From positions 1-64,000 of the forward strand of contig JAVHLG010000002.1 in the NCBI GenBank assembly GCA_031082225.1: a DNA stretch of 64,000 nt, given 5' to 3'. The notes below the pieces were generated by a model. It ran no database searches. It was not told the DNA's origin and saw only the letters and a program-made list of their open reading frames with translations. This DNA comes from Desulfovibrionaceae bacterium. GTDB taxonomy: Bacteria > Desulfobacterota > Desulfovibrionia > Desulfovibrionales > Desulfovibrionaceae. Shown piece after piece: positions 6,251 through 26,525 of this stretch. Made by a program: the position numbers and the translations under genes. Position 1 is the stretch's first letter; each line of letters begins with the position of its first letter.

Positions 6251-7654
6251 TCAGGACTTCTTTCTCCGGGTGGGGATGTTCGCCAGGATCAGGTGGCGGT
6301 AGATGCTCGGCACGCTCAGTCCGGACATCAGGCTGGCCGTTGTGACGTCGTGGCTGCACAGGGCCATGAGTTCCTGGAAATATTGCCTGTCCCGCCGGGC
6401 CTTGTATTCGTCGTAGGGCACAACGTCCCCGGCCTGCCCGGGGGGGGCGGCTGACGCCCCGGCCGGGGCCGCGCCGTTGCCGGGAGCGGCGTCCAGGGCG
6501 GAGAACCGGAGATGGCCCGGCAGGTGTTTGGGATAGACCACGGCGTCGCGCCCGGCGGCAATGACCGCCGCCTCCATGACGTTCCCCAGTTCCCGGACGT
6601 TTCCCGGCCACGGATATCCGGTCAGAAGCCGCATGAGTTGCGCCGAGACCCGTTTGGCGGGAAGGCCGTACCGGTCGCAGGATGCGCCGATGAAATGGGC
6701 GGCCAGAAGCGGGATGTCCTCCCCCCGCTCCCGCAGGGGCGGCAGTCCGATCTCCAGGGTGCGCAGCCGAAACAGCAGGTCGCTGCGAAATTCCCCGGTC
6801 CCGGTCAGGGCCTCCAGGTCCCGGTTGGTGGCGGCCACCAGCCGAAAGTCGCTGGATTGCTCCCTGGGCCCTCCCACCGGTCGATAGCGGCGCTCCTGAA
6901 GCACCCGCAAAAAGGATTTCTGCAGGGCCGGGGGCAATTCCCCGACCTCGTCCAGAAACAGCGTCCCCCCGTCGGCCTCGCCCACCAGCCCCCTGCGATC
7001 CGCATGGGCCCCGGTGAACGCGCCCTTGACATGGCCGTACAGGGCGCTTTCCACCAGGGTCTCCGTGAGGTTGCCACAATCCACAACCACGAACGGCCCC
7101 GCCCCCCGGCGGCTCTGGGCGTGTATGGCCCGGGCCGCGAGCTCCTTGCCCACCCCGGTCTCCCCGAGCAGGAGCACCCCGGCCTCGCTGTCCGCAGCCT
7201 GGGCAATCCGCTCCCGGGCCCGCCGCATGGGCGGCGAGGTTCCGATGATGCCGTCGTTACGGGGCTCGCGGGCCGCCTGGCCGCGCCGGTGGTCCCGGCG
7301 GTAGGCCAGGGCGTCGGCCAGGGAGGCCCGGACGCTCTGGGGGGAGGCCGGTTTGCGGATGTAGTCCCAGGCTCCGCAGGCCAGACTCTGGCGCGCCCCG
7401 TAGTTGTTGCCCAGGCCGGTGATGACGATGATCTCGGGATGGCCGGGGGAGGCCGCCAGATCGTCGATGGCCTTTTGGCCGTCGCCGTCGGGCAGATCCA
7501 GATCCAGGTAGATGACATCGACGCCGGTTCCGGCCATGTCCATGCCGGAGCGCAGATTCCCGGCCAGAAGGATTTCGTGGTCCATGTCCGCAAAGCAGCG
7601 GGAAAGGCTGTTGCGGATGAGTTCGTCGTCGTCGATGATCAGGATGCGGGCCAT
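6251..7654 (-). CDS. Sigma-54-dependent response regulator (NtrC family)
   Basis: A 467-residue NtrC-type activator. The receiver domain is residues 1-120 (acid pocket DDD 8-10, phosphoacceptor D51 in YLDLDLP, K in IRKPA). The AAA+ domain has Walker A GETGVGKE, the sigma-54 contact loop GAFTGA, Walker B GGTLFLDEVGE and the R-finger region LLFRLRTLEIGLPPLRER. A C-terminal Fis-like helix-turn-helix follows (TTASLMSGLSVPSIYRHL). ATG at 7654 is preceded by GGAAACGAC. The kinase gene lies 74 bp upstream on the same strand. The pair is divergent from the glutamine-synthetase-like operon, whose upstream region holds a possible -24/-12 promoter, so it probably controls that operon. Confidence 0.93.
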   Translation of the reverse strand: MARILIIDDDELIRNSLSRCFADMDHEILLAGNLRSGMDMAGTGVDVIYLDLDLPDGDGQKAIDDLAASPGHPEIIVITGLGNNYGARQSLACGAWDYIRKPASPQSVRASLADALAYRRDHRRGQAAREPRNDGIIGTSPPMRRARERIAQAADSEAGVLLLGETGVGKELAARAIHAQSRRGAGPFVVVDCGNLTETLVESALYGHVKGAFTGAHADRRGLVGEADGGTLFLDEVGELPPALQKSFLRVLQERRYRPVGGPREQSSDFRLVAATNRDLEALTGTGEFRSDLLFRLRTLEIGLPPLRERGEDIPLLAAHFIGASCDRYGLPAKRVSAQLMRLLTGYPWPGNVRELGNVMEAAVIAAGRDAVVYPKHLPGHLRFSALDAAPGNGAAPAGASAAPPGQAGDVVPYDEYKARRDRQYFQELMALCSHDVTTASLMSGLSVPSIYRHLILANIPTRRKKS

Positions 7655-7728
7655 GTCGTTTCCGGTTTTTTCGGCCTGGGCCACGGGGGTGCGCGTCCGG
7701 CCGGGATTCCCCGCTGTGCCGCCGGGGC

Positions 7729-9633
7729 TCAGGCCCGGGGGGCGGCGGCGGGGCACAGGACGCGAATGCGCTCCACCAGGGCGCCGGGGGTCATGGGCTT
7801 CATGAGAAATCCGGCGATGCCCGCCGCCTCGGCCTGTGCCTCCAGGTCCGGGGCCACATGCCCGGTGCAGATGACCACCCTGGCGGCGGGGTCGTGGTCC
7901 AAAATCTTCCCGGCCATGTCCATGCCGCTTATCCCGGGCATGGAGAGGTCGGCGACGATCAGGTCGTAGCGCCCCCGGGCCCGGAAATATTCCTTGAGGC
8001 CTTCCTCGCCGCTGTCGGCGGTGAACACGGTAAATCCCGCCTCGCGCAGCACCCGGGACATGGCCGACAGGGCCCCGGCGTCATCGTCCACCAGAAGCAG
8101 CCGTCCGGTGGCCCTCTTTGCCGGACGCGGCTCGGCCACGATCTGCTCTCCTGCCGGGGCGCACAGGGGCAGGTAGACCGTAAACGTCGCGCCCTGGCCG
8201 GGAACGCTTTCCACCGAGACCCCGCCGCCGCAGCTTGTGGCGATGGCGTGGACCACGGCCAGCCCCATCCCGGTCCCGCCGGAGTTCATCTTGGTGGTGA
8301 AAAAGGGCTCGAAGATACGTTCGATCTTGTCCGGCTCGATGCCCCGGCCGTTGTCCGTAACCCGCAGGACCACATAGTCCCCGGGGGCCAGCCCGGGATG
8401 GGGGGCCTTTTTCCTGGAGGCCACGGTCAGGTTGTCCAGGTCCACGGCCAGCAGGCCGCCGCCGGGCATGGCCTGCACGGCGTTGCGGCACAGGTTCAGC
8501 AAAAGCTGCTGTACCTGGGCCGGATGGGCCATGACGCAATCCTTGGCGGCCCGGCAGGCGGCCCTCAGGGTGACGCTTGCGGGCAGGGAGGCCTGGAGCA
8601 GATCCAGGCTTTCCCTGGCCAGGGGGGTCAGCCGCAGGGGGGAATGGCTGACGTTTTGCTGGCGGCTGTATTCCAGCACCTGTTCCACGAGGTCGGCGGC
8701 CCGGTAGGCCGCGCGCAGGGCCTCGGCCAGGGGTTCGGCCAGGATCCGGTCGGCGGTCTTGTTTAAGGCATAGTCGATGTTGAAGATGATGGGGACCAGA
8801 TTGTTGTTCAGGTCGTGGGCGATGCCCCCGGCCAGCACCCCGATGGCCCGCATCTTGTGGGCCTGGTAGAGCTCGCGCTCCACCCGCTTGAGCTCGGTGA
8901 TGTCGATGCCCAGTTCCATGACCAGGGGTTCGCCCTGTTCGTCCTCGAAGGGATAGTCGTAGATGTGGAAGGTGCGGCCGTCGCCGTCGGTGAACTGCCA
9001 GTTCTCGGGCTCGCCGGTCTCGAAGACCCGGAAGGTGGGACAGTGGGGGCAGGGCGCATCGCGCCCGCTGAAGACCTCGTAGCAGTAACGGCCGTCGGTC
9101 TCGCCATAGAAATTGCGCGTTTTCCGGTTGGCGTAGGCCACGGTGTAGTCCCGGCGCTGCATGTAGACGAACACCGGCAGCTCGTCGATGACGTTCAAAA
9201 AGAGCCTGCGGCCGCGTTTTTTGAGATGCTCCTCGCGGCGACGCACCAGCCGCTCGGCTTTGAGCGCCTGCTTGAGGCGTTCGTCCACAGGCTCCTCACG
9301 CACCTCCGCCACAGCCTCGCCGCCGTCCCCCCCGGTCCCGGGAAACGGGGTGATCTGGCAGACAAACCGCCGGGGCTCGTCCCCGGAGGCGTCCTCCCAG
9401 GAGAAACGATGCGGCCCGCCCTGGGAGAATACGGCGGCCAGGCCGGTCCCAAGCCCCTCCCGCACCCCGGGGGCCAGGGGCAGTTCGTCCAGCAGGCGGC
9501 CGGCCGCCCCCTCCCGCCTGCCGCACACCATCTCCCGGAACGCGCGGTTGGCGAAGGTGATGCGGCCGTCGGCGGAAAACACCGCCAGGGCGGCGAGGCT
9601 TTGCGCGGCGAAGTGGTGAAAGTGTCCGGTCAT
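7729..9633 (-). CDS. PAS hybrid sensor histidine kinase with receiver domain
   Basis: A 634-residue soluble kinase. PAS-1 spans residues about 8-55; a charged coiled coil (112-142) follows; PAS-2 spans about 145-250 and carries cysteines C184, C195 and C198. The H-box has phosphoacceptor H273 in GGIAHDLNNNL. HATPase N and G boxes are LLNLCRNAVQAM, DNGRGIEPDKIERIFEPFF and GGTGMGLAVV. A C-terminal receiver starts near RLLLVDDDAGAL with acceptor D in ADLSMPG. No transmembrane segment is seen, so it senses an intracellular signal. The ATG follows GAGGGAGAGGCGG. Partner of the downstream NtrC-type regulator. Confidence 0.92.
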   Translation of the reverse strand: MTGHFHHFAAQSLAALAVFSADGRITFANRAFREMVCGRREGAAGRLLDELPLAPGVREGLGTGLAAVFSQGGPHRFSWEDASGDEPRRFVCQITPFPGTGGDGGEAVAEVREEPVDERLKQALKAERLVRRREEHLKKRGRRLFLNVIDELPVFVYMQRRDYTVAYANRKTRNFYGETDGRYCYEVFSGRDAPCPHCPTFRVFETGEPENWQFTDGDGRTFHIYDYPFEDEQGEPLVMELGIDITELKRVERELYQAHKMRAIGVLAGGIAHDLNNNLVPIIFNIDYALNKTADRILAEPLAEALRAAYRAADLVEQVLEYSRQQNVSHSPLRLTPLARESLDLLQASLPASVTLRAACRAAKDCVMAHPAQVQQLLLNLCRNAVQAMPGGGLLAVDLDNLTVASRKKAPHPGLAPGDYVVLRVTDNGRGIEPDKIERIFEPFFTTKMNSGGTGMGLAVVHAIATSCGGGVSVESVPGQGATFTVYLPLCAPAGEQIVAEPRPAKRATGRLLLVDDDAGALSAMSRVLREAGFTVFTADSGEEGLKEYFRARGRYDLIVADLSMPGISGMDMAGKILDHDPAARVVICTGHVAPDLEAQAEAAGIAGFLMKPMTPGALVERIRVLCPAAAPRA

Positions 9634-9922: not shown

Positions 9923-9938
9923 TTGGCACGGGGTTTGA
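9923..9938 (+). promoter_or_regulatory. Possible sigma-54 (-24/-12) promoter of the ligase operon
   Basis: TTGGCACGGGGTTTGA matches the -24 element TTGGCACG exactly with correct 10-bp spacing, but the -12 dinucleotide is GA instead of the nearly invariant GC. It lies 92 bp before the start codon of the first operon gene and is divergent from a sigma-54 activator gene. Confidence 0.42.
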
Positions 9939-10029
9939 TAGGGATATCCTGAAATTTACAATCATGGAAAATAAACGACGTCGGCGGACACGGCACAGCC
10001 GGGAAAGAAACCTAAAAGGAAGACCACCC

Positions 10030-11412
10030 ATGACCATGCAGCAGCATCCGTCCATGTCTATAGACACCATCAAAAAGACGATCCGGGACCACGATATCCA
10101 TTTCATCCGCTTCGAGCAGTCCGATCTGCACGGCGTGTCCAGAAGCAAGACCGTCCCCGTCGGATCGTTTATGGACTACATCGAAAACGGTCTCAACTTC
10201 TATGGCGGCCTCCTTGGCCTGGACATCCAGTCCATGGTCCCCAAGGGAACCGGATATGCCGAAGAGGTGGCCTTTGCCGACCACTGCACCGTGCCAGACC
10301 TGTCCACCTTCACGGTCCTGCCATGGGTTCCCAACACCGCCAACATCACCGTGGACCCCTATTGGTACGACGGCACACCGGCCATGGCCTCCCCCCGGCT
10401 GCTTCTCAAAAAGCTCATCAACACCTTCGACAGCCTCGGTTACATCTGCCGCCTGGGCTACGAATTCGAATTCTACGTCCTGAACAAGGACACCAAAAAG
10501 CCCGTCTACGGCGGACAGCCCATTTTCGTGACGCTCAAAAACAACTTCGACATCGACTTCATCTACGACCTCATGCGCAAAATGGACCAGGCCGGGGTGC
10601 GCATCATCACCCAGAACTCTGAGCACGGCCCCGGGCAGCAGGAGATCAACCTCTATTACAAGGATGGCCTGGCCGCTGCGGACACGGCCTTTTTGTACAA
10701 GATGGGGACCAAGGAGATCGCCCTGCAGCACGGCTACATCGCCACCTGGCTGACCAAGCCCTTCATCGACTCCAGCGGTTCCGGCTCCCATTTCCACGTC
10801 AGCCTCATCGACAAGAAAACCGGCAAAAACGCCTTCGACGATCCAAACGGCGAATACGGCCTCACGGATCTGGCCAGGAAGTTCCTGGCCGGGATGCTCA
10901 AGCACGCCCGGGCCAACACCGTGTTCACCGCACCCACCATCAATTGCTACAAACGCTACCGGGTCAACTCCTTTGCCCCCCACAGCGCCACCTGGGGCAT
11001 GGAAAACCGCACCGTGGGCATCCGGGTCAAGGGCTGCCGCGGCCAGAGCACCCATTTCGAAAACCGCCTGGCCTGCGCCGGGACCAACCCCTATCTCCTG
11101 GCCCTGACCACCCTGGCCGCCGGGCTGGAGGGCATCCAGTCCTCCCCGGAACTCCCGGCCCCCATCACCGACATCGCCTATGAGCGCGACGACGTGCCCC
11201 GGCTCCCGGGAAGCCTCGAGGAGGCCATCACGGCCTTCGAGGCCGACACGGACCTGCACGCCGTGCTGGATCCCGAATTCATCAAGCTGGTCCTGGCGCT
11301 CAAGAAATTCGAGGTGGAGACGGCCAAGGCCCGTTTCCCGGACTACGGCACGCCGGAATTCAACAACCGGATCGATCCCTGGGAATGGGACTACTACATG
11401 GAGCTGATCTAG
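10030..11412 (+). CDS. Glutamine-synthetase-family gamma-glutamyl ligase (PuuA/GlnT-like)
   Basis: A 460-residue glutamine synthetase fold enzyme, expected to join glutamate to ammonia or an amine at ATP cost. Catalytic-fold motifs seen: EFEFYV and NSEHGPGQQEI (metal glutamates), SGSGSHFHVSL (ATP/metal histidine), NCYKRYR, MENRTVGIR and STHFENRLACAGTNPYL. It lacks the 'RxP' after ENRT and is in a catabolic-looking operon with a transporter, which points to a gamma-glutamylamine ligase rather than GlnA. ATG follows AAAGGAAG; the frame is open further upstream but unsupported. First gene of the operon. Main alternative: a housekeeping or methylamide-type glutamine synthetase. Confidence 0.82.
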   Translation: MTMQQHPSMSIDTIKKTIRDHDIHFIRFEQSDLHGVSRSKTVPVGSFMDYIENGLNFYGGLLGLDIQSMVPKGTGYAEEVAFADHCTVPDLSTFTVLPWVPNTANITVDPYWYDGTPAMASPRLLLKKLINTFDSLGYICRLGYEFEFYVLNKDTKKPVYGGQPIFVTLKNNFDIDFIYDLMRKMDQAGVRIITQNSEHGPGQQEINLYYKDGLAAADTAFLYKMGTKEIALQHGYIATWLTKPFIDSSGSGSHFHVSLIDKKTGKNAFDDPNGEYGLTDLARKFLAGMLKHARANTVFTAPTINCYKRYRVNSFAPHSATWGMENRTVGIRVKGCRGQSTHFENRLACAGTNPYLLALTTLAAGLEGIQSSPELPAPITDIAYERDDVPRLPGSLEEAITAFEADTDLHAVLDPEFIKLVLALKKFEVETAKARFPDYGTPEFNNRIDPWEWDYYMELI

Positions 11413-11690: not shown

Positions 11691-12791
11691 ATGTCCAGAA
11701 CCATCCCCCTGATCGAACTCGCCGGGACGCCTTTCGAGATGGGCCTGGCCCACGGCCGGGCCATGAAGGAGGCCATCACGGACTTCGTGGCCAGCATCGC
11801 GGCCGTGCATCAGGCCAACAACGCCTACCTCAAGGCCGGACACGAGACGCTGACGGCCTTTTGCCTGCGCAACATCGGATTTCTGGAGAAATTCTCCCCG
11901 GGGCTGGTGGACGAAATGCGCGGCGTCGCCCAGGGGGCCGGGACGACCTTCGAGGAGATCCTGCACCTCAACTGCTTCCTGGAATTGGAGGACGTGCGGG
12001 CCCCGGGGCTCGGGGGCAGGCTGCTGCCCGATTCCCTGTGGGGCTGCACGACCGTCAACGTCATGGCCGGGGCCTCGGCGGACGGTCGGCCCATCCTCGC
12101 CCAGACCTACGACATGGAGAAGTACTACGAAAAGTACCTGTGCCTGTTGCGCCTTCGCCCCGAAAACGGCCCCCAGGCCCTGGTCGTGTCCTTTGCCGGA
12201 ATCCTGGGCCTGTGCGGCGTAAATAGCGCCGGGGTGGGGCTGGTCATCAACAAGGTGGCGGCCACGGACGCCCGGCCCGGGGTCATCTATCCGTTTATCG
12301 TGCGCAAGGCCCTGGCCGCCGAGCGCATCGGCGACGCCCTGGGCGCGGCGATCTTCTCCCCCCGGGCCACGGGCATCAACTATCAGCTTGCCGGGTCCGG
12401 GGCGGCCTTTTGCGCCGAGACCTCGGCCACGACCTACGCCCTTTTGGACATCCCCGGGGCCATCGCCCACACCAATCACTACCTTTCCGAACGCATGCGG
12501 GCCTTCGAGACCCCGAACTGGCTCAGCCACGGCGGCTCCATGGTGCGCCGCCAGGTGGCCCAGGGGTTCCTGGACGAACGCCAGGGCCGCCTGACCCCGG
12601 AGGCCCTCAAGGAGCTGTCCGCGAACCACGTCAACCACCCGCGCTGCATCTGCGCCCACGGCTTCCCCGGCGAGGACGAGCGCACGGCCTTCCATACCGT
12701 ATTCGGCGTGGTCATGGACCCGGACGCGGGCATACTCGAGGTCTGCCCCGGCAATCCCTGCGAGAACGCCTACCACCGCCACAGCCTGTAA
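11691..12791 (+). CDS. C45-family Ntn-hydrolase (acyl-CoA:6-APA acyltransferase-like amidase)
   Basis: A 366-residue protein of the penicillin acyltransferase/C45 family, in which a Gly-Cys bond is cut autocatalytically and the freed Cys becomes the N-terminal nucleophile of an amidase. The cleavage motif is DSLWG-C119-TTV. Other family marks are GTPFEMGLAHGRAMKE near the N-terminus, NSAGVGLVINK and the C-terminal HTVFGVVMDPDAGILEVCPGNP. ATG follows AAGGAACCGCC. In this operon it may split an amide bond in the imported substrate or a gamma-glutamyl intermediate. No signal peptide, so cytoplasmic. Confidence 0.8.
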   Translation: MSRTIPLIELAGTPFEMGLAHGRAMKEAITDFVASIAAVHQANNAYLKAGHETLTAFCLRNIGFLEKFSPGLVDEMRGVAQGAGTTFEEILHLNCFLELEDVRAPGLGGRLLPDSLWGCTTVNVMAGASADGRPILAQTYDMEKYYEKYLCLLRLRPENGPQALVVSFAGILGLCGVNSAGVGLVINKVAATDARPGVIYPFIVRKALAAERIGDALGAAIFSPRATGINYQLAGSGAAFCAETSATTYALLDIPGAIAHTNHYLSERMRAFETPNWLSHGGSMVRRQVAQGFLDERQGRLTPEALKELSANHVNHPRCICAHGFPGEDERTAFHTVFGVVMDPDAGILEVCPGNPCENAYHRHSL

Positions 12792-12903: not shown

Positions 12904-14478
12904 ATGGACGAGACGAAACGCAAGATCGGCAAGGCATGCAGGAAGTTCGACGAAGGCAAAATGACCCGGCGCAGCTTTCTGACCAAGCTGGCGGCCCTGG
13001 GGGTCACGGCGGCGGTGGCCAATGCCGTGAGCCTGTCGCCCTTTGGCGCGGCCACGGCCTGGGCCTCCATCTCCGGCCCTGAGGAGCGGGCCTGGGCCCT
13101 GGCCAAGGAGGCCGCCGCCAAGGCGTCCAAGAAGACCCTGACGCTGCTCATCCCCACCGGGTCCATCGGCAACATGACCCCGTATGTGGACAAGTGGAAA
13201 AACGAGCTGGGCATCCAGTTGGAGTTCATCGAGGAACCCGACGAGGTGGTGCACACCAAGGGCATGCAGGAGGCTGTGGCCAAGACCGGCCGTTACGACG
13301 TGATGATGCCCACGGCCATGTCCTATCCCGACTGGATCGACTCCGGGGTCATCTACGACCTTACCGACTGGACCGACAAATACCAGCCGGACCTGTTCAA
13401 CAAGCAGTGGGGCGTGGTCTTCCCGGCCAGCCACCATGCCCAGCTCTACAACGGCCGCGTGGCCGGACTTTTAAACGACGGCGACCAGATCACGCTCCTT
13501 TGCCGCTCGGATTATCTGCAAGACCCCGAGAAGATGAAGGCCTTTGAGGACAAGTACGGCTACAAGCTGGACGTTCCCCACACATGGAAGGAATACTACA
13601 ACCTGGCCCAGTTCATGCATGATCCGGCCAAGGGCTTCTACGGCTCCCTGGAATACCGCTCCCCCTACTACGTCAAGTGGATGTTCATGCAGCGCCTGGT
13701 GTCCAAGGGCAAGCTGTACTTCGACGCGGACATGAACCCCACCTTCAACTCCGAGGAAGGCGTGGCCGCTCTGGAAGACATGCTGGCCATGAACGCCTAC
13801 CTGCACCCCGACGCCTTCAGCTTCACCTGGTCCTCCAACTACAACGCCTTCGGACGCGGCGAAGGGTTCATGAACATCGTGTGGCCGTCGGGATTCAAGT
13901 ATTCCATGGCCCCCTCCACCGGCCCGGCCACCACGGGCAAGATCGCGGCCACGGTCATGCCCGCCGACACCTTAAAAGACGGCACCAAGCTCTACGCGGG
14001 CCTTTTCTGCTGGGGCTACGGCTATGCCGTGTCCAGGTATTCCGCCAACCCCGAACTGGCCTACGCCTATTCCCAGTGGATGACCTCCCCGACCATCTCG
14101 GCCGACGCCATCCCCTACCTGGGCGGCTATTCCGATCCCTACCGGGTCAACCACATGCTCGAACCCACCGAGCGGTTGGTTGCCACCTACACCAAGCCGT
14201 ACTTAAAGACCCTCTACGACAACATGGTCAACACCGTGCCGGACTTCTGCCTGCCCGGCGGCTTCGAATACCAGGACGCCCTGGACAAGCAGGTCCACGC
14301 CTGCATGACCGGCGAGAAAAAGCCGAAAGAGGCCCTGGAGGCTGCGGCCCACTCCTTTGAGCGGATCACCAAGCGCATCGGCAAGGACAAGGTGCGCAAG
14401 TCCTGGCTGACCCTGGCCAAAAACCTGGCCGAGCCCATCAAGAAGGCCAGCGGCGCGGACACGTGGCCGGATGCGTAG
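12904..14478 (+). CDS. ABC transporter substrate-binding protein (family 1), Tat-exported
   Basis: A 524-residue periplasmic binding protein. The N-terminus carries a twin-arginine signal (MTRRSFLTKLAALGVTAA, arginines 22-23) with cleavage near AWA-SISG. The body reads as a family-1 polyamine/sugar-type binding protein (LTLLIPTGSIGNMTPYVDKW, GRYDVMMPTAMSYPDWIDSGVIYDL, NIVWPSG). It delivers substrate to the two permeases encoded downstream; Tat export suggests folding before export. GAGGTGC precedes the ATG. A hairpin separates it from the permease gene, which would permit higher expression. Substrate not identifiable. Confidence 0.88.
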   Translation: MDETKRKIGKACRKFDEGKMTRRSFLTKLAALGVTAAVANAVSLSPFGAATAWASISGPEERAWALAKEAAAKASKKTLTLLIPTGSIGNMTPYVDKWKNELGIQLEFIEEPDEVVHTKGMQEAVAKTGRYDVMMPTAMSYPDWIDSGVIYDLTDWTDKYQPDLFNKQWGVVFPASHHAQLYNGRVAGLLNDGDQITLLCRSDYLQDPEKMKAFEDKYGYKLDVPHTWKEYYNLAQFMHDPAKGFYGSLEYRSPYYVKWMFMQRLVSKGKLYFDADMNPTFNSEEGVAALEDMLAMNAYLHPDAFSFTWSSNYNAFGRGEGFMNIVWPSGFKYSMAPSTGPATTGKIAATVMPADTLKDGTKLYAGLFCWGYGYAVSRYSANPELAYAYSQWMTSPTISADAIPYLGGYSDPYRVNHMLEPTERLVATYTKPYLKTLYDNMVNTVPDFCLPGGFEYQDALDKQVHACMTGEKKPKEALEAAAHSFERITKRIGKDKVRKSWLTLAKNLAEPIKKASGADTWPDA

Positions 14479-14600: not shown

Positions 14601-14751
14601 AAGAATGCCCCCGGCGGCCAACGGGCCAAAGCCCTCTGGACCCCCGTAACGGGAAGATGGAAACGAGAAGCGGGGCGCTCCCCGCAAAGATGTGGACATC
14701 AGCCGTTCCCCTGGTTCGCAGGGACCGGGGGAACGCACAAAGGCGCATGAC

Positions 14752-15741
14752 GTGAATGTATCCGCAATGGCATCACCGCCCGGCCCCACCCACCCGGCCG
14801 ACGCCCCGGGCCTTTCCCCTGCCGCGCCGCACGGCGGGGGAAAGCCTCCCCGGGCAAAGGGCGGCAACATCGGCCTGGCCCTGACCCTGCCGGGACAGAT
14901 CGTCTCCATCCTGGTCCTGGTCATCCCGCTTCTGGTGGCCCTGTACATGAGCTTCACCGACTGGTCGCCCACCCGGGGCTCCCTGTTCGACGCCGAGTTC
15001 GTGGGATTTGAGAACTACAGCGAACTGCTCATCTGGGACACCCGGTTTCTCTATGCGGTCCTGCGCACCCTGTGCATCTCCGCCGTCTGCCTGGCCCTGG
15101 AATTCGCCTTCGGGCTCTCCCTGGCGGTGCTGTTCATGCGCCGGTTCCGGGGAAAATCCCTGCTTTTTTCCGCCTTTTTGACGCCCATGATGATCCTGCC
15201 CGTGGTGGTCGGCTACATCTTCTGGATGCTCTTCCAGTCCAGCGGTCCGGTGAACCAGATCCTCGAATTCGTCCTTGGCCCCGACGTGGCCCTGGAGTGG
15301 TTCCGCAGCGCCCCCCTGGCCGTCACGGCGGTGATCATCACCGAGGTCTGGCACTGGACGCCGCTGTTTTTCCTGATCCTTCTGTCAGGCCTTAATTCCG
15401 TGCCGGAAAACCCGGTGCGCGCGGCGGTCATCCTGGGGGCCAACCCCCGCCAGGTCTTCTGGCGGGTGGTCATGCCCACGCTCAAGCCGGTGATCATCGT
15501 GGCCTTCGTCATCCGGACCATGGAGATCATCAAGCTTTTCGACGAGGTGTTCATGTTGACCCGGGGCGGGCCCGGATCGGCCACGGAGACCATCAGCCTC
15601 TACATCTACAAGCTGGCCTTCAACGATTTCCAACTGGCCTACGGCGCGGCCGCCGCCTTCCTGGTGCTCCTCGGGGCGCTGGGGCTCATCCACCTGCTGC
15701 TTCTGCCGGTGCGCAACCAGCTTTTGGAGGTGAAGCGCTGA
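14752..15741 (+). CDS. ABC transporter permease (MalF type)
   Basis: An inner-membrane permease of about 329 residues with six predicted membrane segments. The EAA loop that docks to the ATPase is VRAAVILGANPRQVFWRVVMPTLKP. A proline-rich cytoplasmic leader precedes the first membrane helix. Start is uncertain: GTG 14752 has AAAGGCG upstream, ATG 14767 is five codons later, and an in-frame GTG at 14692 is possible. Its stop overlaps the next gene (TGATG), so the pair is translationally coupled. Confidence 0.85.
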   Translation: MNVSAMASPPGPTHPADAPGLSPAAPHGGGKPPRAKGGNIGLALTLPGQIVSILVLVIPLLVALYMSFTDWSPTRGSLFDAEFVGFENYSELLIWDTRFLYAVLRTLCISAVCLALEFAFGLSLAVLFMRRFRGKSLLFSAFLTPMMILPVVVGYIFWMLFQSSGPVNQILEFVLGPDVALEWFRSAPLAVTAVIITEVWHWTPLFFLILLSGLNSVPENPVRAAVILGANPRQVFWRVVMPTLKPVIIVAFVIRTMEIIKLFDEVFMLTRGGPGSATETISLYIYKLAFNDFQLAYGAAAAFLVLLGALGLIHLLLLPVRNQLLEVKR

Positions 15742-16601
15742 TGCTCTCCAAAAAACTCACCCTGTTCCAGGCGGCGCTTCTGGCCGCGGCCCTGGCCGTG
15801 GTGCTCTTCCCGGTGTTCTGGATCCTCATGACGGCCATCAAGCCCCCCACGGACTGGAACGCCTCGCCCGCCATCTGGATGCCGTCGCAGCCCACCCTCG
15901 TCAACTTCAAGACCCTCTTTGACCCCGACGCCCTCAAGGAATACGGCGTGGGCGGGGTCAGCCAGTCGGCCACCAAGGCCGTTATCGGATCGCTTCTGGC
16001 CTCGATCACGGCCACGACCCTGTCGGTGCTCATCGGCCTGTTCGCGGCCATCGGCATCTCCCGCTACGGCGCCGAGAACAAATCCACGCCGCTGGTCATC
16101 CTGTCCGGGCGGATGTTTCCCCCGGCGGCCATCGCCGTGCCCTTCGTGATCATCTTCTCCAACATCGGCCTGACCGACAGCTACGTGGGGCTCATCGCCA
16201 TCTATGTGGCGGCCACCCTGCCTTTCTCCACCTGGATGCTCAAAAGCTTCGTGGACGACCTGCCCCGGGAGATCGAGGAGGCGGCCATGATCGACGGAAA
16301 ATCGCGGATAAAGGCCCACCTCACGGTGACCATTCCGCTCATCCGGGGCGGGCTTTTCGCCACCACCATGTTCATCTTCATCCTCAACTGGTCGGAATTC
16401 ATGTTCGCCCTGGTGCTCTCCTACAGCAACGTCAGCACCATCCCCGTGCAACTGGCCAAATACGTCACGGCCACGGCCGGAACCCTCTACGGCGTCCAGG
16501 CCGCCCTGGCCGTCCTGGCCATGGTTCCCCTGGTCATCGTCGGCTATCTCATCCAGGGCCATCTGGCCCGGGGCATGACTTTCGGAGCCATCAAGCAATG
16601 A
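15741..16601 (+). CDS. ABC transporter permease (MalG type)
   Basis: A 286-residue permease with about six membrane helices; EAA loop IEEAAMIDGKSRIKAHLTVTIPLIRGG. It starts inside the stop of the preceding permease and overlaps the ATPase gene by 4 bp (ATGA). Forms the heterodimeric channel with its neighbour. Confidence 0.88.
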   Translation: MLSKKLTLFQAALLAAALAVVLFPVFWILMTAIKPPTDWNASPAIWMPSQPTLVNFKTLFDPDALKEYGVGGVSQSATKAVIGSLLASITATTLSVLIGLFAAIGISRYGAENKSTPLVILSGRMFPPAAIAVPFVIIFSNIGLTDSYVGLIAIYVAATLPFSTWMLKSFVDDLPREIEEAAMIDGKSRIKAHLTVTIPLIRGGLFATTMFIFILNWSEFMFALVLSYSNVSTIPVQLAKYVTATAGTLYGVQAALAVLAMVPLVIVGYLIQGHLARGMTFGAIKQ

Positions 16602-17713
16602 GCATCCCCAAACTCGAACTGGTGTCCCTGGTCAAAGAATACAACGACGGGGCCGTGGTGGCCGTGGACGGCATCGACTTAAGCGTGGCCCCCGGGGAGA
16701 CCATCGCCCTGCTTGGCCCCTCGGGCTGCGGCAAGTCCACCACCCTGAACATGGTCGTCGGCCTGGAAGAACCCACCTCGGGCGACATCCACATCGATGG
16801 CCTGTCCATCGTCAACATCCCCCCGGGAAAACGCAACGTGGGCCTGGTTTTCCAGGATTATGCGGTCTTTCCCTCCATGACCGTGCGCCAGAACCTGGCC
16901 TTCGGGCTGGTGGTGCGGAAAAAAGGCAGGGAGGAAATCGCCCGGGCCGTGGACGAGGTCGCCGAGCTTTTGGGCATGGTCGGCCGCCTGGACGTCCGGG
17001 CCCGGGATCTCGGCGGTTCCGAGATGCAGCGGGTGGCCATCGGCCGCACTCTGGTGACCAAACCGGCCGTGCTGCTTCTCGACGAGCCCCTGTCCAACCT
17101 GGAGGCCGCCGCCCGGCTGGCCATGCGCCGGGAGCTGCGGCGGCTGCAAAGCGAAATCGGCCTGACCATCATCTACGTCACCCACGACCAGATCGAGGCC
17201 CTGTCCCTGGCCGACCGCATCGCCGTGATGCACGCCGGGAAGATCCTGCAGGTGGAAAAAACCAGCCTCATCTGTGAACGCCCGGACCACGTCTACGTGG
17301 CCGGGTTTCTGGGGTCGCCGCCCATGAACCTGCTTGCCGGGGAGATCAGGCCCGGCGTGGCAGGCGCGGCGGGACCGGCGTTTACTCATGGCCCCCTGAC
17401 CCTGGCCCTGCCTGCGGGCTGCGCCCTGGAAAAGGGCTCGTACACCCTGGGGCTGCGGCCCGAGTCCCTGCGGCTGGCCCCGGAATCCGAAGCCCCCCTG
17501 GCCGGGACGGTCTCCCTGGTGGAATTTCGGGGCGGCGACGTGGTGGTCACCGTGGATGTCGCCTCGGTCAAACTGGATGTCATCCTTCCCGCCACCGAGC
17601 GTCCCGCCATGGGACAGTCCGTGGGGGTGGATTTCGACCCGGAATCCCTGGTCTTTTTCGGCGGCGACACCAGCCGCAGACTGGACGCAAGCCCCATGGG
17701 GAGGCCCCTGTGA
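16598..17713 (+). CDS. ABC transporter ATPase A (intact Walker, Q- and H-loops; degenerate signature)
   Basis: A 371-residue MalK/UgpC-like ATPase. Walker A is GPSGCGKST (40-48), Q-loop Q86 in VFQDYAVFPSMT, Walker B LLLDEP with E163, and H-loop H196 in VTHDQIEA. The ABC signature, normally LSGGQ, is DLGGSEMQR (LGGSE, 138-142), so it is altered. A TOBE/OB regulatory domain follows from about residue 240. It overlaps the permease and the second ATPase gene by 4 bp each. Paired with ATPase B it would form a heterodimer; see the entry for B. Confidence 0.88.
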   Translation: MSIPKLELVSLVKEYNDGAVVAVDGIDLSVAPGETIALLGPSGCGKSTTLNMVVGLEEPTSGDIHIDGLSIVNIPPGKRNVGLVFQDYAVFPSMTVRQNLAFGLVVRKKGREEIARAVDEVAELLGMVGRLDVRARDLGGSEMQRVAIGRTLVTKPAVLLLDEPLSNLEAAARLAMRRELRRLQSEIGLTIIYVTHDQIEALSLADRIAVMHAGKILQVEKTSLICERPDHVYVAGFLGSPPMNLLAGEIRPGVAGAAGPAFTHGPLTLALPAGCALEKGSYTLGLRPESLRLAPESEAPLAGTVSLVEFRGGDVVVTVDVASVKLDVILPATERPAMGQSVGVDFDPESLVFFGGDTSRRLDASPMGRPL

Positions 17714-18828
17714 TCGACACCGCGCCGAACGGCCGGACAGCCCCGGTTCTGACCCTGGAAAACCTGACGAAACGCTTCCGGGGCAAGATCGCCCTGGACG
17801 GCGTGTCCTTCTCGGTCCCCGAGGCCTCGCTGACGGTCATCCTGGGCCATGCCGGGGCGGGCAAGACCACCACCCTGCGCCTCATCGCCGGGCTGGACCG
17901 GCCCGACGCCGGGCGGGTGCTCCTGGCGGGCCGGGACGTGGCCGGGTGGGAGCCCAAAGACCGCGACATCGCCATGATCTTCGACAATCTGGCCCTGTAT
18001 CCGAACAAGACCGGCTTCGAAAACATCGCAAGCCCCCTTTTGATCCGAAAGACGCCCCGGCCGGAGATCGCGGAGAAGGTCCAGGCCATGGCCAAGGTGC
18101 TGAAAATCGGCCACACCCTGGGACGGCTTCCGGCAACCATGAGCGGCGGGGAGCGGCAGCGCATCGCCCTGGGCCGGGCGCTCATCCGCACGCCGAGCCT
18201 GTTTCTTTTGGATGAACCCCTCTCCAGCCTGGACGCCAAGCTGCGCATCGAACTGCGCGCCGAACTGCGACGCCTGCAAAGCGAACACGGCTATTCCTTC
18301 CTCATGGCCACGCCGGACTTCAACGAGGCCCTGGCCATCGCCGACACGGTGATCATGCTGCGCCAGGGAAGGGTGGTCCAGATCGCCCCGCCCCAGGCGC
18401 TCTACGACCAGCCCGTGGACCGGGAGACGGCCCGGGCCGTGGGCGCGCCGCTGATCAACATCCTCCCGGCCCGCCTCGATCCGGACGGAAAGGGCATCCA
18501 CGTCTCGGAATGGCGGCTGCCCGTCCCGGGGCATCTGCATGCGGCCCTGGCCTCCAGCCCGGACGGATTCGAGCTGGGCATCCGGCCCGAGAACCTGGGG
18601 CTCGTGGACATCCCCGGGGCGGATCTGACCGGAAGGGTGTCCGATATCGAACCCCTGGGCCTCAAATCCGTGCTGACGGTGAAAAAGGGCGAGGCCGAGG
18701 TGCGCGTCCTGGTGGAGAGCGTCGCGGCCAAGACCGTGGCCGTGGGCCGGGAGATCGGCCTACGCGTCAAGCACCCCTCCATGCTGCACGCCTTTGCTGC
18801 GGCCTCCGGCCGACGCCTGACGGCCTGA
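17710..18828 (+). CDS. ABC transporter ATPase B (intact signature; Q- and H-loop residues lost)
   Basis: A 372-residue paralogue of ATPase A. Walker A is GHAGAGKTT (46-54), signature MSGGERQR (144-151) intact, Walker B LFLLDEP with E169. The Q-loop position is Asp (D92 in MIFDNLALYPNKT) and the switch histidine is Pro (P202 in ATPDFNEA). A C-terminal TOBE-like region is present. Its defects complement those of ATPase A, leaving one canonical and one degenerate ATP site in an A-B heterodimer. Two-ATPase operons of this layout are known, for example the rhizobial GlpSTPQV glycerol importer. Confidence 0.87.
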   Translation: MIDTAPNGRTAPVLTLENLTKRFRGKIALDGVSFSVPEASLTVILGHAGAGKTTTLRLIAGLDRPDAGRVLLAGRDVAGWEPKDRDIAMIFDNLALYPNKTGFENIASPLLIRKTPRPEIAEKVQAMAKVLKIGHTLGRLPATMSGGERQRIALGRALIRTPSLFLLDEPLSSLDAKLRIELRAELRRLQSEHGYSFLMATPDFNEALAIADTVIMLRQGRVVQIAPPQALYDQPVDRETARAVGAPLINILPARLDPDGKGIHVSEWRLPVPGHLHAALASSPDGFELGIRPENLGLVDIPGADLTGRVSDIEPLGLKSVLTVKKGEAEVRVLVESVAAKTVAVGREIGLRVKHPSMLHAFAAASGRRLTA

Positions 18829-18896: not shown

Positions 18897-19898
18897 ATGA
18901 TCAAAATTTTCGTCACCTACCGATGCAACCTGGCCTGCCCGTACTGCTTCGCCACGCAGATGCGGCGGGAATATCCCGGGGACATGACCCGGGAGACGTT
19001 CGCCAGGCTTTTGGAGTGGATGCGCAGGGCCGGGCTCCCGGCCGCGGCCTTCATCGGCGGCGAACCGACCCTGCACCCGGACCTGCCGGAGATGATCGAG
19101 GCCACGGTGGCCGCAGGCATCCCGGCGGCGCTTTTCACCAACGGCCTGTTCCCCGTCTCTGTGGCGGAAAGGCTGGCCCCCCTGGTCTCCAACTTCGTGG
19201 TCAACTACAACGACCCCGCCGGATATGCCCCGGCCCAGGCCGACATGCTTCACGCCACCCTTACCCGGCTGCGCCAGCTCGGGGCCAGGGTGGCCTTCTC
19301 CAAAAACTTCTCCCGGGGCGGCCTGGACTACGGCTACCTGCTTGACGCCCTGGACCGCTACGGCGTGACCACCGTGCGCTACGACATCTCCCGCCCAAAC
19401 CACGACGCGGACAACAACCATTTCATCCTGGACGACACCCGGCAGGTCATGTCCCACGCGGCCTGCTTCGTGAAGGCCTGCGAGGCCCGGGGGGTGCGCA
19501 CCGGCCTGGACTGCAGCGTACGCCTGTGCGACCTGCACGACGAGGACCGGCGCTATCTGGAGCGGGTTTCCATGAAATTTTCCGGGATCTGCCACCCCTG
19601 CGCCGACGTGCATCCCGACCTGTCCGCCTCCTATTGCCTGCCCATGCGCGGCATCAGCGTCCCCGACGTGACGGCCTTTGCCGATCACGCCGCCCTCATG
19701 TGGCGACTGGCCGAGGCGGCGCGGCCCATCAGGCTTGCCAACGTCTCGGCGGCATGTTTCGAATGCAGGGACTTCATGCGGCGCTGCCAGGGCGGCTGCA
19801 TGGCCCTTATGCGAACCGCCTGCCCTGAATCGGAAGAAGACGGGACGGGCGACGCCCTGAATACCGCCCCGGCGGAGGCCAAACGTTATGAGCGATAG
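18897..19898 (+). CDS. Radical SAM protein with extra C-terminal cysteines (SPASM/Twitch-like)
   Basis: A 333-residue radical SAM protein: CNLACPYC near residues 9-16 gives the CX3CX2C cluster, followed by the AAFIGGEPTLHPDL motif. C-terminal cysteines in GICHPC, SASYC and ACFECRDFMRRCQGGC look like ligands for an auxiliary Fe-S cluster as in SPASM/Twitch maturases. GAGGACGGC precedes the ATG; an upstream open frame is antisense-like. It overlaps the start of the Mo/GATase gene by 11 bp, suggesting it matures or works with that enzyme. No RiPP precursor or sulfatase is nearby. Substrate unknown. Confidence 0.8.
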   Translation: MIKIFVTYRCNLACPYCFATQMRREYPGDMTRETFARLLEWMRRAGLPAAAFIGGEPTLHPDLPEMIEATVAAGIPAALFTNGLFPVSVAERLAPLVSNFVVNYNDPAGYAPAQADMLHATLTRLRQLGARVAFSKNFSRGGLDYGYLLDALDRYGVTTVRYDISRPNHDADNNHFILDDTRQVMSHAACFVKACEARGVRTGLDCSVRLCDLHDEDRRYLERVSMKFSGICHPCADVHPDLSASYCLPMRGISVPDVTAFADHAALMWRLAEAARPIRLANVSAACFECRDFMRRCQGGCMALMRTACPESEEDGTGDALNTAPAEAKRYER

Positions 19899-22575
19899 CA
19901 AAACCGTGATCACCACCTGCACCAGGGACTGCCCCAACGCCTGCGGCCTGGTGGCCACCGTGAAAGACGGTCGACTGACCGGGCTTGCCGGGAATCCCGA
20001 CCATCCCCTGACCCGGGGCGTGGCCTGCGTCAAGGCCGCGCGGTACGTCAAACGGGTCTACAGCCCGGAACGGATCACCCACCCCATGCTCCGCAGAAAC
20101 GGCCGCTGGGTCCGGGCGGGCTGGGACGAGGTGCTGGATCTGGTGGCCGAACGCCTGAAGACATTCGCTGCGGAGTCCGGGACCGAATCCATCTTGTATT
20201 ACCAGGGATATGGCGAACGGACGGCGCTGAAGCTTCTCAACAAGTATTTCTTCAACCTTTTCGGCGGGGTGACCACCCTGCGCGGCTCCCTGTGCGGCGG
20301 CGCCGGGCAGGCCTCGCAAAACCTGGACCTGGGCCAGCGCATCTCCCACGACCCCCTGGACCATTTCAACAGCCAGGCCATGATCCTGTGGGCCAGAAAC
20401 CCCGTGTCCACCAACATCAGCCTCACGGCCATCGCCCGGGACATCCGCAGTCGCGGGGGCTCGGTCCTGCTCATCGACCCCGCGCGCAGCAAGTCGGCGG
20501 TCCTGGCCGACCACCATATCGCCCCCCGGCCGGGCGGCGACGTCTTCCTGGCCATGGCCGCAGCCAAGCTGGTGCTGGCCGCCGGGGCCGAGGACCGGGA
20601 GTTTTTGGCCCGTCATGCCGTGGGCGTGGAGGCCTACCTGGAGATTCTGTCGGGTTTTCCCGTGGACGACCTGTGCCGCCGGGCCGGGGTGTCCCGGGGG
20701 GAGGCGGAACTTCTGGCCGAGACGCTCATGGGCAGAAGGCCTGCCTCCATCCTGCTCGGCTGGGGCCTGCACCGCCATGAATACGCCCACTACGGCATCC
20801 GGGCCATCGACGCCCTGGCGGCCATCTGCGGCAACCTGGGGGTTCCCGGCGGCGGGGTGAGCCAGGGGTTCGAGGAATACGGCCCCTACGACCAACGCCT
20901 GTGGGGCGACGACCTCAATCCGCCGCGACGCACCCTGCTTTTGCCGGTTATCGGCCGGGAGATCCTGGCCGCCAAAGATCCGGCCATCCGCATGATCTAC
21001 GTCACGGCGGCCAACCCCCTGTGCATGGCCCCCAATACCGCCGCCGTGGCCGAGGCCTTCCGCAAGGCCGAGTTCGTGGTCTATTCCGGCCACACCATGG
21101 ACGACACCTCGGACTACGCCCACGTCTTTTTGCCCGCCACCACCTTTCTGGAAGAGATCGATGTCATGGCCAGCTACGGGCACAACTACGTGGGTCCGGT
21201 CAATCCGGCCATCCCGCCCGTGGGCCAGTGCAAATCGGAATTCCGCATGTTTTACGAACTGGCGGCGCGCTTCCCCTTTGCGGACCGGTTTTGCAAAAGC
21301 GAGGAAGAGTGGCTGCGTACGCTGTGCGCCCCGGTGTGGGAGCAGGGCGGCGACCCGGAGAGCCTCCGGCAGGAGGCCTTCCGCCTGGACGCCCCCATGG
21401 TTCCCTATGCGGACAAGGTCTTCCCCACGCCGTCGGGAAAATTCCAGTTCATGACCGCGTTTGATCCGTCCCACATTCCCGAACCCGACCCGGCCTATCC
21501 CTACCGGTTTTTGACCATCGCCCCTCACGGCTACATCTGTTCCGAACGGACCATGGCCGACCACGAACCCCTGCCCGTGGTCCGCCTGGCCGCATCCGAG
21601 GCCGCCAAGCGGGGCCTGGCCCATGGCATGCCGGTCGTGGTGAAAAGTCCGCTGGGCGAGGCCCTGGCCACATTGCGCGTGGAGGAGGGCCTGCGGCCGG
21701 ACATCCTGGTGGCCGACCGGGGAGGCTGGAACAAGGCCGGGCACGGCCTCAACAGGCTGACCCGGGATCTGGCCAGCCGGGTGGGAAACGGCACGCCGTA
21801 TTACGAAACAGCCGTGACCGTATGTCCCGTTCCGAATGAAGGCCCGGCCGGGAGGCGCATCCTGGTGGTCCAGCACAGCGAGCGGGCCCCGGGCGGGGAT
21901 TTCGTCAAGGGGCTGGCCCGGCTTGGCGCGCTCCCGACCACGGTCAATCCGGCCCGGGGGGACGATCTGCCCGAATCTCCCGAGGGCTTTGACGCCCTGG
22001 TGGTCCTGGGAGGGCCGCAGCACGCCTCCGACGACGCGGCCTCGCCGCACTTCCCGGCCCTGCTTGCGCTCATGCGGGCTTTCGACGCCGAGAACCGGCC
22101 CGTGGCCGGCATCTGCCTGGGGGCGCAGCTTTTGGCCCGGGCCCATGGCGGCAGGCCGCAGCCCATGGGCCGACTGGAATTCGGGTTCACGACGCTTGCA
22201 GCCACCGCCGAGGGGCAGGTCGATCCGGTGCTTGGGCCTGCCCTGCCTCTGCCCCGGCTCATGGAGTTTCACGAGGACACCTTCGACCTGCCCCCGGGGG
22301 CCGTGGCCCTGGTCACCGGCCAGGCCTGCCCCAACCAGTGCTTCCGGGTCGGGGCCGCCTCCTACGGATTCCAGTTCCACCTGGAGGTCGATTCGGTGAT
22401 CGCCAGCAACTGGATCACGCTCTTCCGGCAGGGGGGCATCGACACCTACGCCCCCTACCGGGAGGCCTACGGCGAGTCGTATTTCGCCGGGCTTGCCGCC
22501 GACCTGCCCGTGCTGGTGGCCGAGTCCCAGGAGTTCTGCCGCCGGGTGGTCCGGAACTGGCTGGCCCTGGCCTGA
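19888..22575 (+). CDS. Molybdopterin oxidoreductase fused to class I glutamine amidotransferase
   Basis: An 895-residue fusion. Residues 1-650 are a Mo/W-bisPGD oxidoreductase: [4Fe-4S] ligands C11, C15, C19 and C47 (CTRDCPNACG...GVAC), a probable Mo ligand C136 in LRGSLCGGAGQ, the domain motifs LWARNPVSTN and SGHTMDDTSDYAHVFLPA, and the cofactor-binding C-terminal barrel to about 645. Residues about 656-895 are a complete GATase-1 domain with triad C743 (GICLGAQLL), H831 and E833 (FQFHLEV), of the YfeJ type (HEDTFDLPPGA). No Tat signal, so cytoplasmic. Last gene of the operon. In the inferred pathway it would oxidise a gamma-glutamylated intermediate and hydrolyse the glutamyl amide. Confidence 0.87.
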   Translation: MSDSKTVITTCTRDCPNACGLVATVKDGRLTGLAGNPDHPLTRGVACVKAARYVKRVYSPERITHPMLRRNGRWVRAGWDEVLDLVAERLKTFAAESGTESILYYQGYGERTALKLLNKYFFNLFGGVTTLRGSLCGGAGQASQNLDLGQRISHDPLDHFNSQAMILWARNPVSTNISLTAIARDIRSRGGSVLLIDPARSKSAVLADHHIAPRPGGDVFLAMAAAKLVLAAGAEDREFLARHAVGVEAYLEILSGFPVDDLCRRAGVSRGEAELLAETLMGRRPASILLGWGLHRHEYAHYGIRAIDALAAICGNLGVPGGGVSQGFEEYGPYDQRLWGDDLNPPRRTLLLPVIGREILAAKDPAIRMIYVTAANPLCMAPNTAAVAEAFRKAEFVVYSGHTMDDTSDYAHVFLPATTFLEEIDVMASYGHNYVGPVNPAIPPVGQCKSEFRMFYELAARFPFADRFCKSEEEWLRTLCAPVWEQGGDPESLRQEAFRLDAPMVPYADKVFPTPSGKFQFMTAFDPSHIPEPDPAYPYRFLTIAPHGYICSERTMADHEPLPVVRLAASEAAKRGLAHGMPVVVKSPLGEALATLRVEEGLRPDILVADRGGWNKAGHGLNRLTRDLASRVGNGTPYYETAVTVCPVPNEGPAGRRILVVQHSERAPGGDFVKGLARLGALPTTVNPARGDDLPESPEGFDALVVLGGPQHASDDAASPHFPALLALMRAFDAENRPVAGICLGAQLLARAHGGRPQPMGRLEFGFTTLAATAEGQVDPVLGPALPLPRLMEFHEDTFDLPPGAVALVTGQACPNQCFRVGAASYGFQFHLEVDSVIASNWITLFRQGGIDTYAPYREAYGESYFAGLAADLPVLVAESQEFCRRVVRNWLALA

Positions 22576-22619
22576 AAAAAACGCCCCGGCGGCAGGGCCT
22601 CTCACCCGACCCGTGGTGC
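22498..22619 (+). repeat. Direct repeat copy A (3' end of Mo/GATase gene and trailer)
   Basis: These 122 bp, covering the last ~26 codons of the Mo/GATase gene and ~44 bp beyond, recur at 26405-26525 in the same orientation with about 9 substitutions and one A indel. Homology stops sharply at GGTGC. A terminator-like AAACGCCC...GGGCGTTT structure follows copy A (22578-22641). Confidence 0.88.
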
Positions 22620-26388: not shown

Positions 26389-26404
26389 GTGTTGCCGTCA
26401 TGCC

Positions 26405-26525
26405 GCCGACCTGCCCATATGTGTGGCCGAGTCCCGGGAGTTCTGCCGCCGGGTGGTCCGGGGCTGGCTGGCCCTGGCCTGAAAAAACGCCCTGGCGGCA
26501 GGGCCTCTCACCCGACCCGTGGTGC
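26405..26525 (+). repeat. Direct repeat copy B (second 3' end of the GATase gene)
   Basis: About 92% identical to 22498-22619. It preserves the reading frame AADLPICVAESREF...WLALA-stop with no gene body upstream, so it is a severed or donor-derived gene end. It contains a GCCCTG-GCGG-CAGGGC hairpin. The 4.0 kb between A and B behave as an inserted segment. Confidence 0.85.

What the first reader, a model, noticed from the sequence alone, without database searches (positions are those of the whole stretch)
19888..22575. Molybdopterin oxidoreductase fused to an intact glutamine amidotransferase
One 895-codon frame carries all four Fe-S cysteines (C11, C15, C19, C47), a candidate Mo ligand C136, and at the C-terminus an intact Cys743-His831-Glu833 triad. 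I know of no characterised enzyme with this pairing. The GATase domain could hydrolyse a gamma-glutamyl amide or supply ammonia.
Basis: partly seen in the sequence, partly recalled or inferred. Interest (0 to 1): 0.75.

Follow-up and report, generated by a model that had tools for sequence, protein, structure and literature searches.

The report
Molybdenum enzyme fused to gamma-glutamyl hydrolase
A sulfate-reducing bacterium carries a molybdenum/tungsten-type redox enzyme fused to a glutamine-amidase domain, and its conserved operon (importer, amide hydrolase, ligase that tags amines with glutamate) suggests an oxygen-free version of a known aerobic way of eating amines.

Summary
19888-22575 is one open 895-codon frame with all the named residues, and full-length relatives recur in about 35 Desulfovibrionaceae genomes. 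The two-domain pairing itself was already catalogued: a 2018 molybdenum survey lists GuaA1/COG0518 fused to DMSOR-family proteins, without function.

New here is the context. The gene is the last of a conserved operon: a sigma54/two-component pair, a glutamine-synthetase-like ligase whose ammonium-site residues are all replaced (as in PuuA and IpuC), a C45 amide hydrolase, a five-gene ABC importer, a radical SAM/SPASM protein, then the fusion. The ligase occurs only alongside the fusion. The GATase triad is intact in 24/24 ligase-positive cases but broken or gone in 5/15 ligase-negative genomes; this is suggestive, not phylogenetically significant. A Rhizobium plasmid carries the same importer with a separate GATase, a ligase and an amidase but no molybdenum enzyme.

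Best reading: an anaerobic counterpart of the Ipu/Puu gamma-glutamylation pathways. The ligase makes a gamma-glutamyl amide, the Mo/W domain oxidises it without O2 (inferred), and the GATase domain releases glutamate plus oxidised product. The substrate is unknown. Ammonia supply to the Mo domain is disfavoured.

The parts
19888..22575 (+). Fusion gene: Fe4S4/Mo(W)-bisPGD oxidoreductase (aa 1-~648) + class I GATase (aa ~655-895)
   Evidence: AF2 mean pLDDT 91.6, pTM 0.91
20293..20295 (+). Cys136, candidate Mo/W ligand, in motif CGG[A/T]G
   Evidence: near-invariant in 45 rows
22114..22116 (+). Cys743, GATase nucleophile (G-I-C-L-G)
22378..22386 (+). His831-x-Glu833 of the GATase triad
18897..19898 (+). 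Radical SAM protein with C-terminal SPASM-like Cys motifs, overlapping the fusion start by 11 nt
17710..18828 (+). ABC importer ATPase 2 (UgpC/MalK type)
16598..17713 (+). ABC importer ATPase 1 (UgpC/MalK type)
15741..16601 (+). ABC importer permease 2
14692..15741 (+). ABC importer permease 1
12904..14478 (+). Solute-binding protein (SBP_bac_1) with a twin-arginine-like N-terminus (TRRSFLTK); 79.5% identical to one on a Rhizobium plasmid
11691..12791 (+). C45/AAT-type Ntn amide hydrolase (Gly-Cys self-processing site WGCTT); likely start 11691, not 11385
9964..11412 (+). Glutamine-synthetase-like ligase with all four ammonium-site residues replaced; true start may be ~20 codons downstream
9924..9939 (+). 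Sigma54-type -24/-12 element TGGCACGGGGTTTGAT, found at a similar place upstream of the ligase in the 14 operon loci examined
7729..9633 (-). Divergent PAS histidine kinase with receiver domain, conserved beside the operon
6251..7756 (-). Divergent sigma54-activating response regulator, conserved beside the operon

Best explanation
The fusion is the last enzyme of an inducible, oxygen-independent gamma-glutamylation pathway for an imported amide or amine. Steps: (1) the ABC importer brings in the substrate (from gene content); (2) the C45 hydrolase cleaves an amide bond, giving an amine (inferred); (3) the GS-like ligase joins the amine to the gamma-carboxyl of glutamate with ATP (supported by loss of the ammonium site); (4) the Fe4S4/Mo(W)-bisPGD domain oxidises the gamma-glutamylated amine, probably using water-derived oxygen, where aerobes use P450, FAD oxidase or Rieske enzymes (inferred); (5) the fused GATase, via Cys743-His831-Glu833, hydrolyses the gamma-glutamyl bond to glutamate plus the oxidised product (triad and ligase link shown, activity inferred). 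The radical SAM protein probably makes another change to the substrate; since the Mo domain persists without it, it is not an obligate maturase. The substrate is unknown.
For: Conserved gene order with the ligase next to the C45 hydrolase. The ligase has D50/S53/Y179/E327 replaced by Y/L/I/F, like PuuA (P/V/V/Y) and IpuC (C/I/T/W), with glutamate, metal and ATP residues kept. Ligase orthologue in 25/288 family genomes; 23 confirmed to hold the fusion, the other 2 are incomplete MAGs; p~7e-22. Triad intact 24/24 with ligase, broken or absent 5/15 without, p=0.005. Mo and GATase genes are separate but adjacent in NaphS2, and a GATase of another subfamily follows the Mo gene in Pelotomaculum. Rhizobium plasmid with same importer plus GATase, ligase, amidase. 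Ipu cluster of TC1: IpuC, P450, ferredoxin, GATase; the GATase step is postulated there in PMC6776027. Best structural match of the GATase domain is DnfC (Z 31.2), reported to hydrolyse glutamine and gamma-glutamyl hydroxamate (PMC11440038).
Against: The Mo domain occurs alone, without ligase or GATase, in many Desulfobacterota as an orphan gene and stays intact in ligase-negative genomes, so it may act on something not gamma-glutamylated. Ten ligase-negative genomes keep an intact triad (six in one genus). Phylogenetically independent pairs show only 2:0 (p=0.5), and GATase/Mo divergence ratios overlap between the two groups. No electron acceptor or aldehyde dehydrogenase is in the operon, and no substrate is identified.
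Confidence: 0.5

Rival explanations
1. The GATase hydrolyses the gamma-glutamyl amide made by the ligase, but the Mo domain acts on a different molecule (before ligation, after release, or in general metabolism); fusion only keeps the two proteins together.
For: The Mo domain exists alone in many genomes and outlives the operon. An intact fusion persists beside a truncated radical SAM gene in G930.
Against: Mo and GATase genes are paired twice with GATases of different subfamilies, and the fused form dominates wherever the ligase is present, as expected for successive steps.
Confidence: 0.25
2. Glutaminase plus channel: the GATase releases ammonia from glutamine and passes it to the Mo domain for an amination.
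For: Class I GATases are classically ammonia suppliers; AF2 predicts a well-defined two-domain particle (pTM 0.91).
Against: No known bis-PGD enzyme uses channelled ammonia (own knowledge). The Mo domain occurs without a GATase in many lineages. GATase decay is seen only where the gamma-glutamyl-type ligase is absent. A stand-alone GATase accompanies the same importer and ligase in Rhizobium without the Mo enzyme.
Confidence: 0.08
3. The Mo domain works reductively (for example on an N-oxide, hydroxamate or sulfoxide group of the imported compound) or non-redox (hydratase-like), with gamma-glutamylation and GATase as carrier chemistry.
For: Top fold matches include DMSO/TMAO reductases and nitrate reductases, and acetylene hydratase is also among them; the fold cannot tell direction.
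Against: Known gamma-glutamylation pathways (Ipu, Puu, aniline) oxidise the tagged intermediate (PMC6776027, PMC11335346).
Confidence: 0.13
4. Ordinary coincidence: a fusion without functional coupling.
For: Some genomes keep the fusion with a broken GATase.
Against: Conservation across about 35 genomes, a conserved operon and regulatory site, and split neighbours.
Confidence: 0.04

Closest known systems
Ipu isopropylamine pathway (IpuC ligase, P450, amidotransferase-type hydrolase; Pseudomonas KIE171, Paenarthrobacter aurescens TC1)
   Same: GS-like gamma-glutamyl ligase, oxidation of the tagged amine, class I GATase-type hydrolase
   Different: O2-dependent P450 rather than a Mo/W enzyme; no fusion, no C45 hydrolase, no radical SAM
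Puu putrescine pathway of E. coli (PuuPABCD)
   Same: Import, gamma-glutamyl ligase, oxidation, GATase-fold gamma-glutamyl hydrolase
   Different: PuuB oxidase and PuuC aldehyde dehydrogenase; PuuD is of the Peptidase_C26 branch (own knowledge); different importer
Aniline/1-naphthylamine gamma-glutamylation (AtdA1/NpaA1 with AtdA2/NpaA2)
   Same: GS-like ligase plus GAT-like hydrolase of the gamma-glutamyl amide (PMC11335346)
   Different: Rieske dioxygenase; the hydrolase there is thought to undo ligation and is dispensable
DnfC GATase (8khs) of the Alcaligenes dirammox system
   Same: Closest solved fold of the C-terminal domain (Z 31.2, 29% identity); a GATase working beside an oxidase
   Different: Stand-alone; partner is a diiron oxidase, not a Mo/W enzyme
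Formate dehydrogenase H and other Fe4S4 bis-PGD enzymes
   Same: Fold, Fe-S Cys pattern, Cys at the Sec/Cys ligand position
   Different: His after the ligand is Gly; far below the FDH family cut-off
DMSOR-GuaA1 (COG0518) fusions listed by Peng et al. 2018 (PMC6147048, Table 4)
   Same: The same two-domain pairing at COG level
   Different: Only a table entry: no organism, operon or function discussed in the passages read

Membership tests
DMSO reductase superfamily, Fe4S4 bis-PGD enzymes | Fe4S4, molybdopterin and dinucleotide-binding domains | tested here: met
   PF04879, PF00384, PF01568 above cut-off; fold Z about 36 to FdhH and Nap
DMSO reductase superfamily, Fe4S4 bis-PGD enzymes | Four Fe-S Cys and a protein Mo/W ligand | tested here: met
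   C11/C15/C19/C47 and C136 near-invariant in 45 rows; metal content not testable
Formate dehydrogenase alpha | Sec/Cys followed by the conserved His | tested here: not met
   C136-Gly137 aligned to Cys-His of FDHs
Formate dehydrogenase alpha | Family score (TIGR01591 cut-off 666 bits) | tested here: not met
   180.7 bits
Class I glutamine amidotransferase | Cys-His-Glu triad and GATase fold | tested here: met
   PF00117 37.3 bits over cut-off 22.8; triad; fold Z 31
Class I glutamine amidotransferase | Ammonia passed to a synthase partner | not testable with these tools
   No coordinates or assay available; no ammonia-using synthase domain seen
Glutamine synthetase (GlnA) | Ammonium-site residues D50, S53, Y179, E327 | tested here: not met
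   Replaced by Y, L, I, F in the operon protein
Gamma-glutamyl organic amide ligases (PuuA/IpuC/AtdA1 type) | GS fold with glutamate/metal/ATP residues kept and the ammonium site replaced | tested here: met
   below all NCBIfam equivalog cut-offs, so no named subfamily
Gamma-glutamyl organic amide ligases (PuuA/IpuC/AtdA1 type) | Ligation of an amine to glutamate | not testable with these tools
   needs enzyme assay
Ipu/Puu-type gamma-glutamylation pathway | Ligase, importer and gamma-glutamyl hydrolase candidate in one cluster | tested here: met
Ipu/Puu-type gamma-glutamylation pathway | O2-dependent oxidase/oxygenase in the cluster | tested here: not met
   None among the operon proteins; a Mo/W enzyme sits there. 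Hence 'works like', not 'member of'
C45 Ntn hydrolases | C45 profile and Gly-Cys self-processing site | tested here: met
   NF040521 225 bits over cut-off 85; WGCTT

The most novel reading that the evidence does not exclude
A molybdenum or tungsten enzyme that hydroxylates or dehydrogenates a gamma-glutamyl amide with water-derived oxygen and, in the same chain, cuts off the glutamate: the first anaerobic gamma-glutamylation catabolic pathway and a new substrate class for bis-PGD enzymes.
Probability: 0.35. Interest if true: 0.8.

Novelty: new variant of a known kind. Interest (0 to 1): 0.6.

Why it matters
As far as the papers searched here show, gamma-glutamylation of amines is described with O2-dependent oxidation steps. 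A sulfate-reducer operon in which a Mo/W enzyme takes that place would extend the strategy to anoxic habitats and give a testable function to a large orphan clade of bis-PGD enzymes in Desulfobacterota. The operon is compact, has a predicted inducible promoter and is present in complete single-contig genomes, so it can be tested directly.

Tried and rejected
Frameshift or assembly artefact: rejected, same frame in about 35 genomes. Formate dehydrogenase: rejected, the His after the ligand is Gly and the score is far below cut-off. True glutamine synthetase: rejected, ammonium site lost. Radical SAM as obligate maturase of the Mo domain: disfavoured, since the Mo domain persists where the radical SAM gene is absent or truncated. 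Internal TGA/TAG in homologues as recoded codons: the two cases inspected (G937, G951) are ordinary stops at the end of a Mo-only gene. Substrate from the solute-binding protein: only weak PDB hits to sugar binders. Relatives of that protein in 385 genomes of an alphaproteobacterial class: none, but the search had no positive control. Antisense ORF 19807-22623: high-GC shadow, no evidence of a gene. Inter-domain channel: no coordinates or PAE available. Literature: no paper on function found.

Full report
Observation. The frame 19888-22575 is open and reads 895 residues. Pfam finds the Fe4S4, molybdopterin and dinucleotide-binding domains and then a class I GATase, all above cut-off. AlphaFold2 with 48 aligned sequences gives mean pLDDT 91.6 and pTM 0.91. 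Residues 1-648 match Fe4S4 bis-PGD enzymes (FdhH, Nap, Z about 36) and residues 655-895 match GATases, best DnfC, 8khs, Z 31.2.

Distribution. The protein recurs fused in about 35 of 288 Desulfovibrionaceae genomes. The family name is inferred from matching named records. In a tree of the Mo domain the fused form needs at least 3-4 changes, consistent with one fusion and later losses. In Delta proteobacterium NaphS2 the two halves are adjacent separate genes. In two Desulfotomaculaceae a GATase of another subfamily (27% and 24% identity to the fusion, PRK09065 type) lies just downstream of the Mo gene, behind an mtmB/pyl cluster. The Mo domain alone, 48-70% identical, is an orphan gene in many sulfate reducers, with no conserved partner.

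Operon. The fusion ends a run of same-strand genes: GS-like ligase, C45 hydrolase, solute-binding protein, two permeases, two ATPases, radical SAM/SPASM, fusion. The radical SAM gene overlaps the fusion by 11 nt. The same order is seen in most ligase-positive loci where the contig is long enough; in NaphS2 the importer is inverted. A PAS kinase and a sigma54-type regulator lie divergently upstream in nearly all operon loci where that stretch is held. A -24/-12-like element TGGCACG-N4-TTG precedes the ligase: one mismatch to consensus in 12 of 14 loci, two in the others. Its position is similar in most loci, and shuffles rarely match it. The whole-window scan for this pattern is not enriched; the case rests on conservation.

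Ligase. Against E. coli GlnA, PuuA and the annotated IpuC of TC1, the operon protein keeps the glutamate, metal and ATP residues but has D50, S53, Y179 and E327 replaced by Y, L, I and F. PuuA and IpuC also lack all four. It is therefore most likely a gamma-glutamyl-amine ligase, not a glutamine synthetase.

Co-occurrence and decay. The ligase orthologue is in 25 of 288 genomes. In 22 the fusion was found by the same survey. A 23rd (G881) has both on one contig. The other two are 67-78% complete MAGs whose ligase contigs are short. Fisher p is about 7e-22, and among genomes at least 90% complete 16 of 16 ligase-positive genomes hold the fusion. The GATase triad is intact in all 24 ligase-positive domains examined. 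This set includes NaphS2 and one further Desulfovibrionales MAG; row L044 was dropped because its genome was only guessed. In 15 ligase-negative genomes three have lost catalytic residues (H831R; C743S; C743R with E833G) and two lack the domain (p=0.005). On the tree only two of seven supported independent contrasts are informative (2:0, p=0.5), and divergence ratios of GATase to Mo domain overlap. So this is suggestive only. One ligase-negative genome (G930) keeps a truncated radical SAM gene next to an intact fusion, a scar of operon loss.

Aerobic counterpart. Plasmid CP021374 of Rhizobium sp. ACO-34A carries the same importer (59-79% identical), a stand-alone GATase, a ligase (41%), an amidase where the operon has a C45 hydrolase, a 2Fe-2S ferredoxin and a serine hydroxymethyltransferase, but no Mo enzyme. 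The TC1 plasmid shows IpuC, P450, ferredoxin and GATases together, and the GATase step is postulated there (PMC6776027).

Mechanism and limits. The shown steps are gene content, active-site residues and co-occurrence. The inferred steps are amide cleavage by C45, oxidation by the Mo/W domain and gamma-glutamyl hydrolysis by the GATase. The weakest link is the Mo step, because this domain persists without the ligase and the GATase. Metal, electron acceptor and substrate are unknown.

Prior art. Peng et al. 2018 list GuaA1 (COG0518) as a new domain fusion of the DMSOR family (PMC6147048 Table 4). The architecture is therefore not new; the operon and its interpretation were not found in the papers searched.

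Noticed in passing
window 22494-22619 and 26401-26525: The 3' end of the fusion gene plus its downstream sequence (126 bp) is repeated at 92% identity about 3.9 kb downstream. The stretch between, much of it low-GC (36-52% against about 65%), is not seen beside this gene in two same-genus relatives, so it looks like an insertion that duplicated the gene end.
   Followed up: partly
window 23847-25874: ORF in the low-GC stretch with MORN repeats and a weak match to MXAN_6640-type metalloproteases.
   Followed up: no
L036 1560-12708, L038 1-10553: Pelotomaculum-type genomes: MtmB, RACo-like activator, URO-D family protein and pylS/B/C/D genes directly upstream of the Mo gene and a separate GATase.
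   Followed up: partly
L089 4978-5676, L093 about 10950-11378: One genus has a second, stand-alone GATase gene between the C45 hydrolase and the solute-binding protein, as TC1 also has two GATases in its ipu cluster.
   Followed up: partly
L151 12666-13145: Truncated radical SAM gene left upstream of an intact Mo-GATase fusion in a genome without the rest of the operon.
   Followed up: partly
L103 9158-22069: Rhizobium sp. ACO-34A plasmid cluster with a divergent MocR-type regulator gene, serine hydroxymethyltransferase and ferredoxin; may hint at the substrate.
   Followed up: partly
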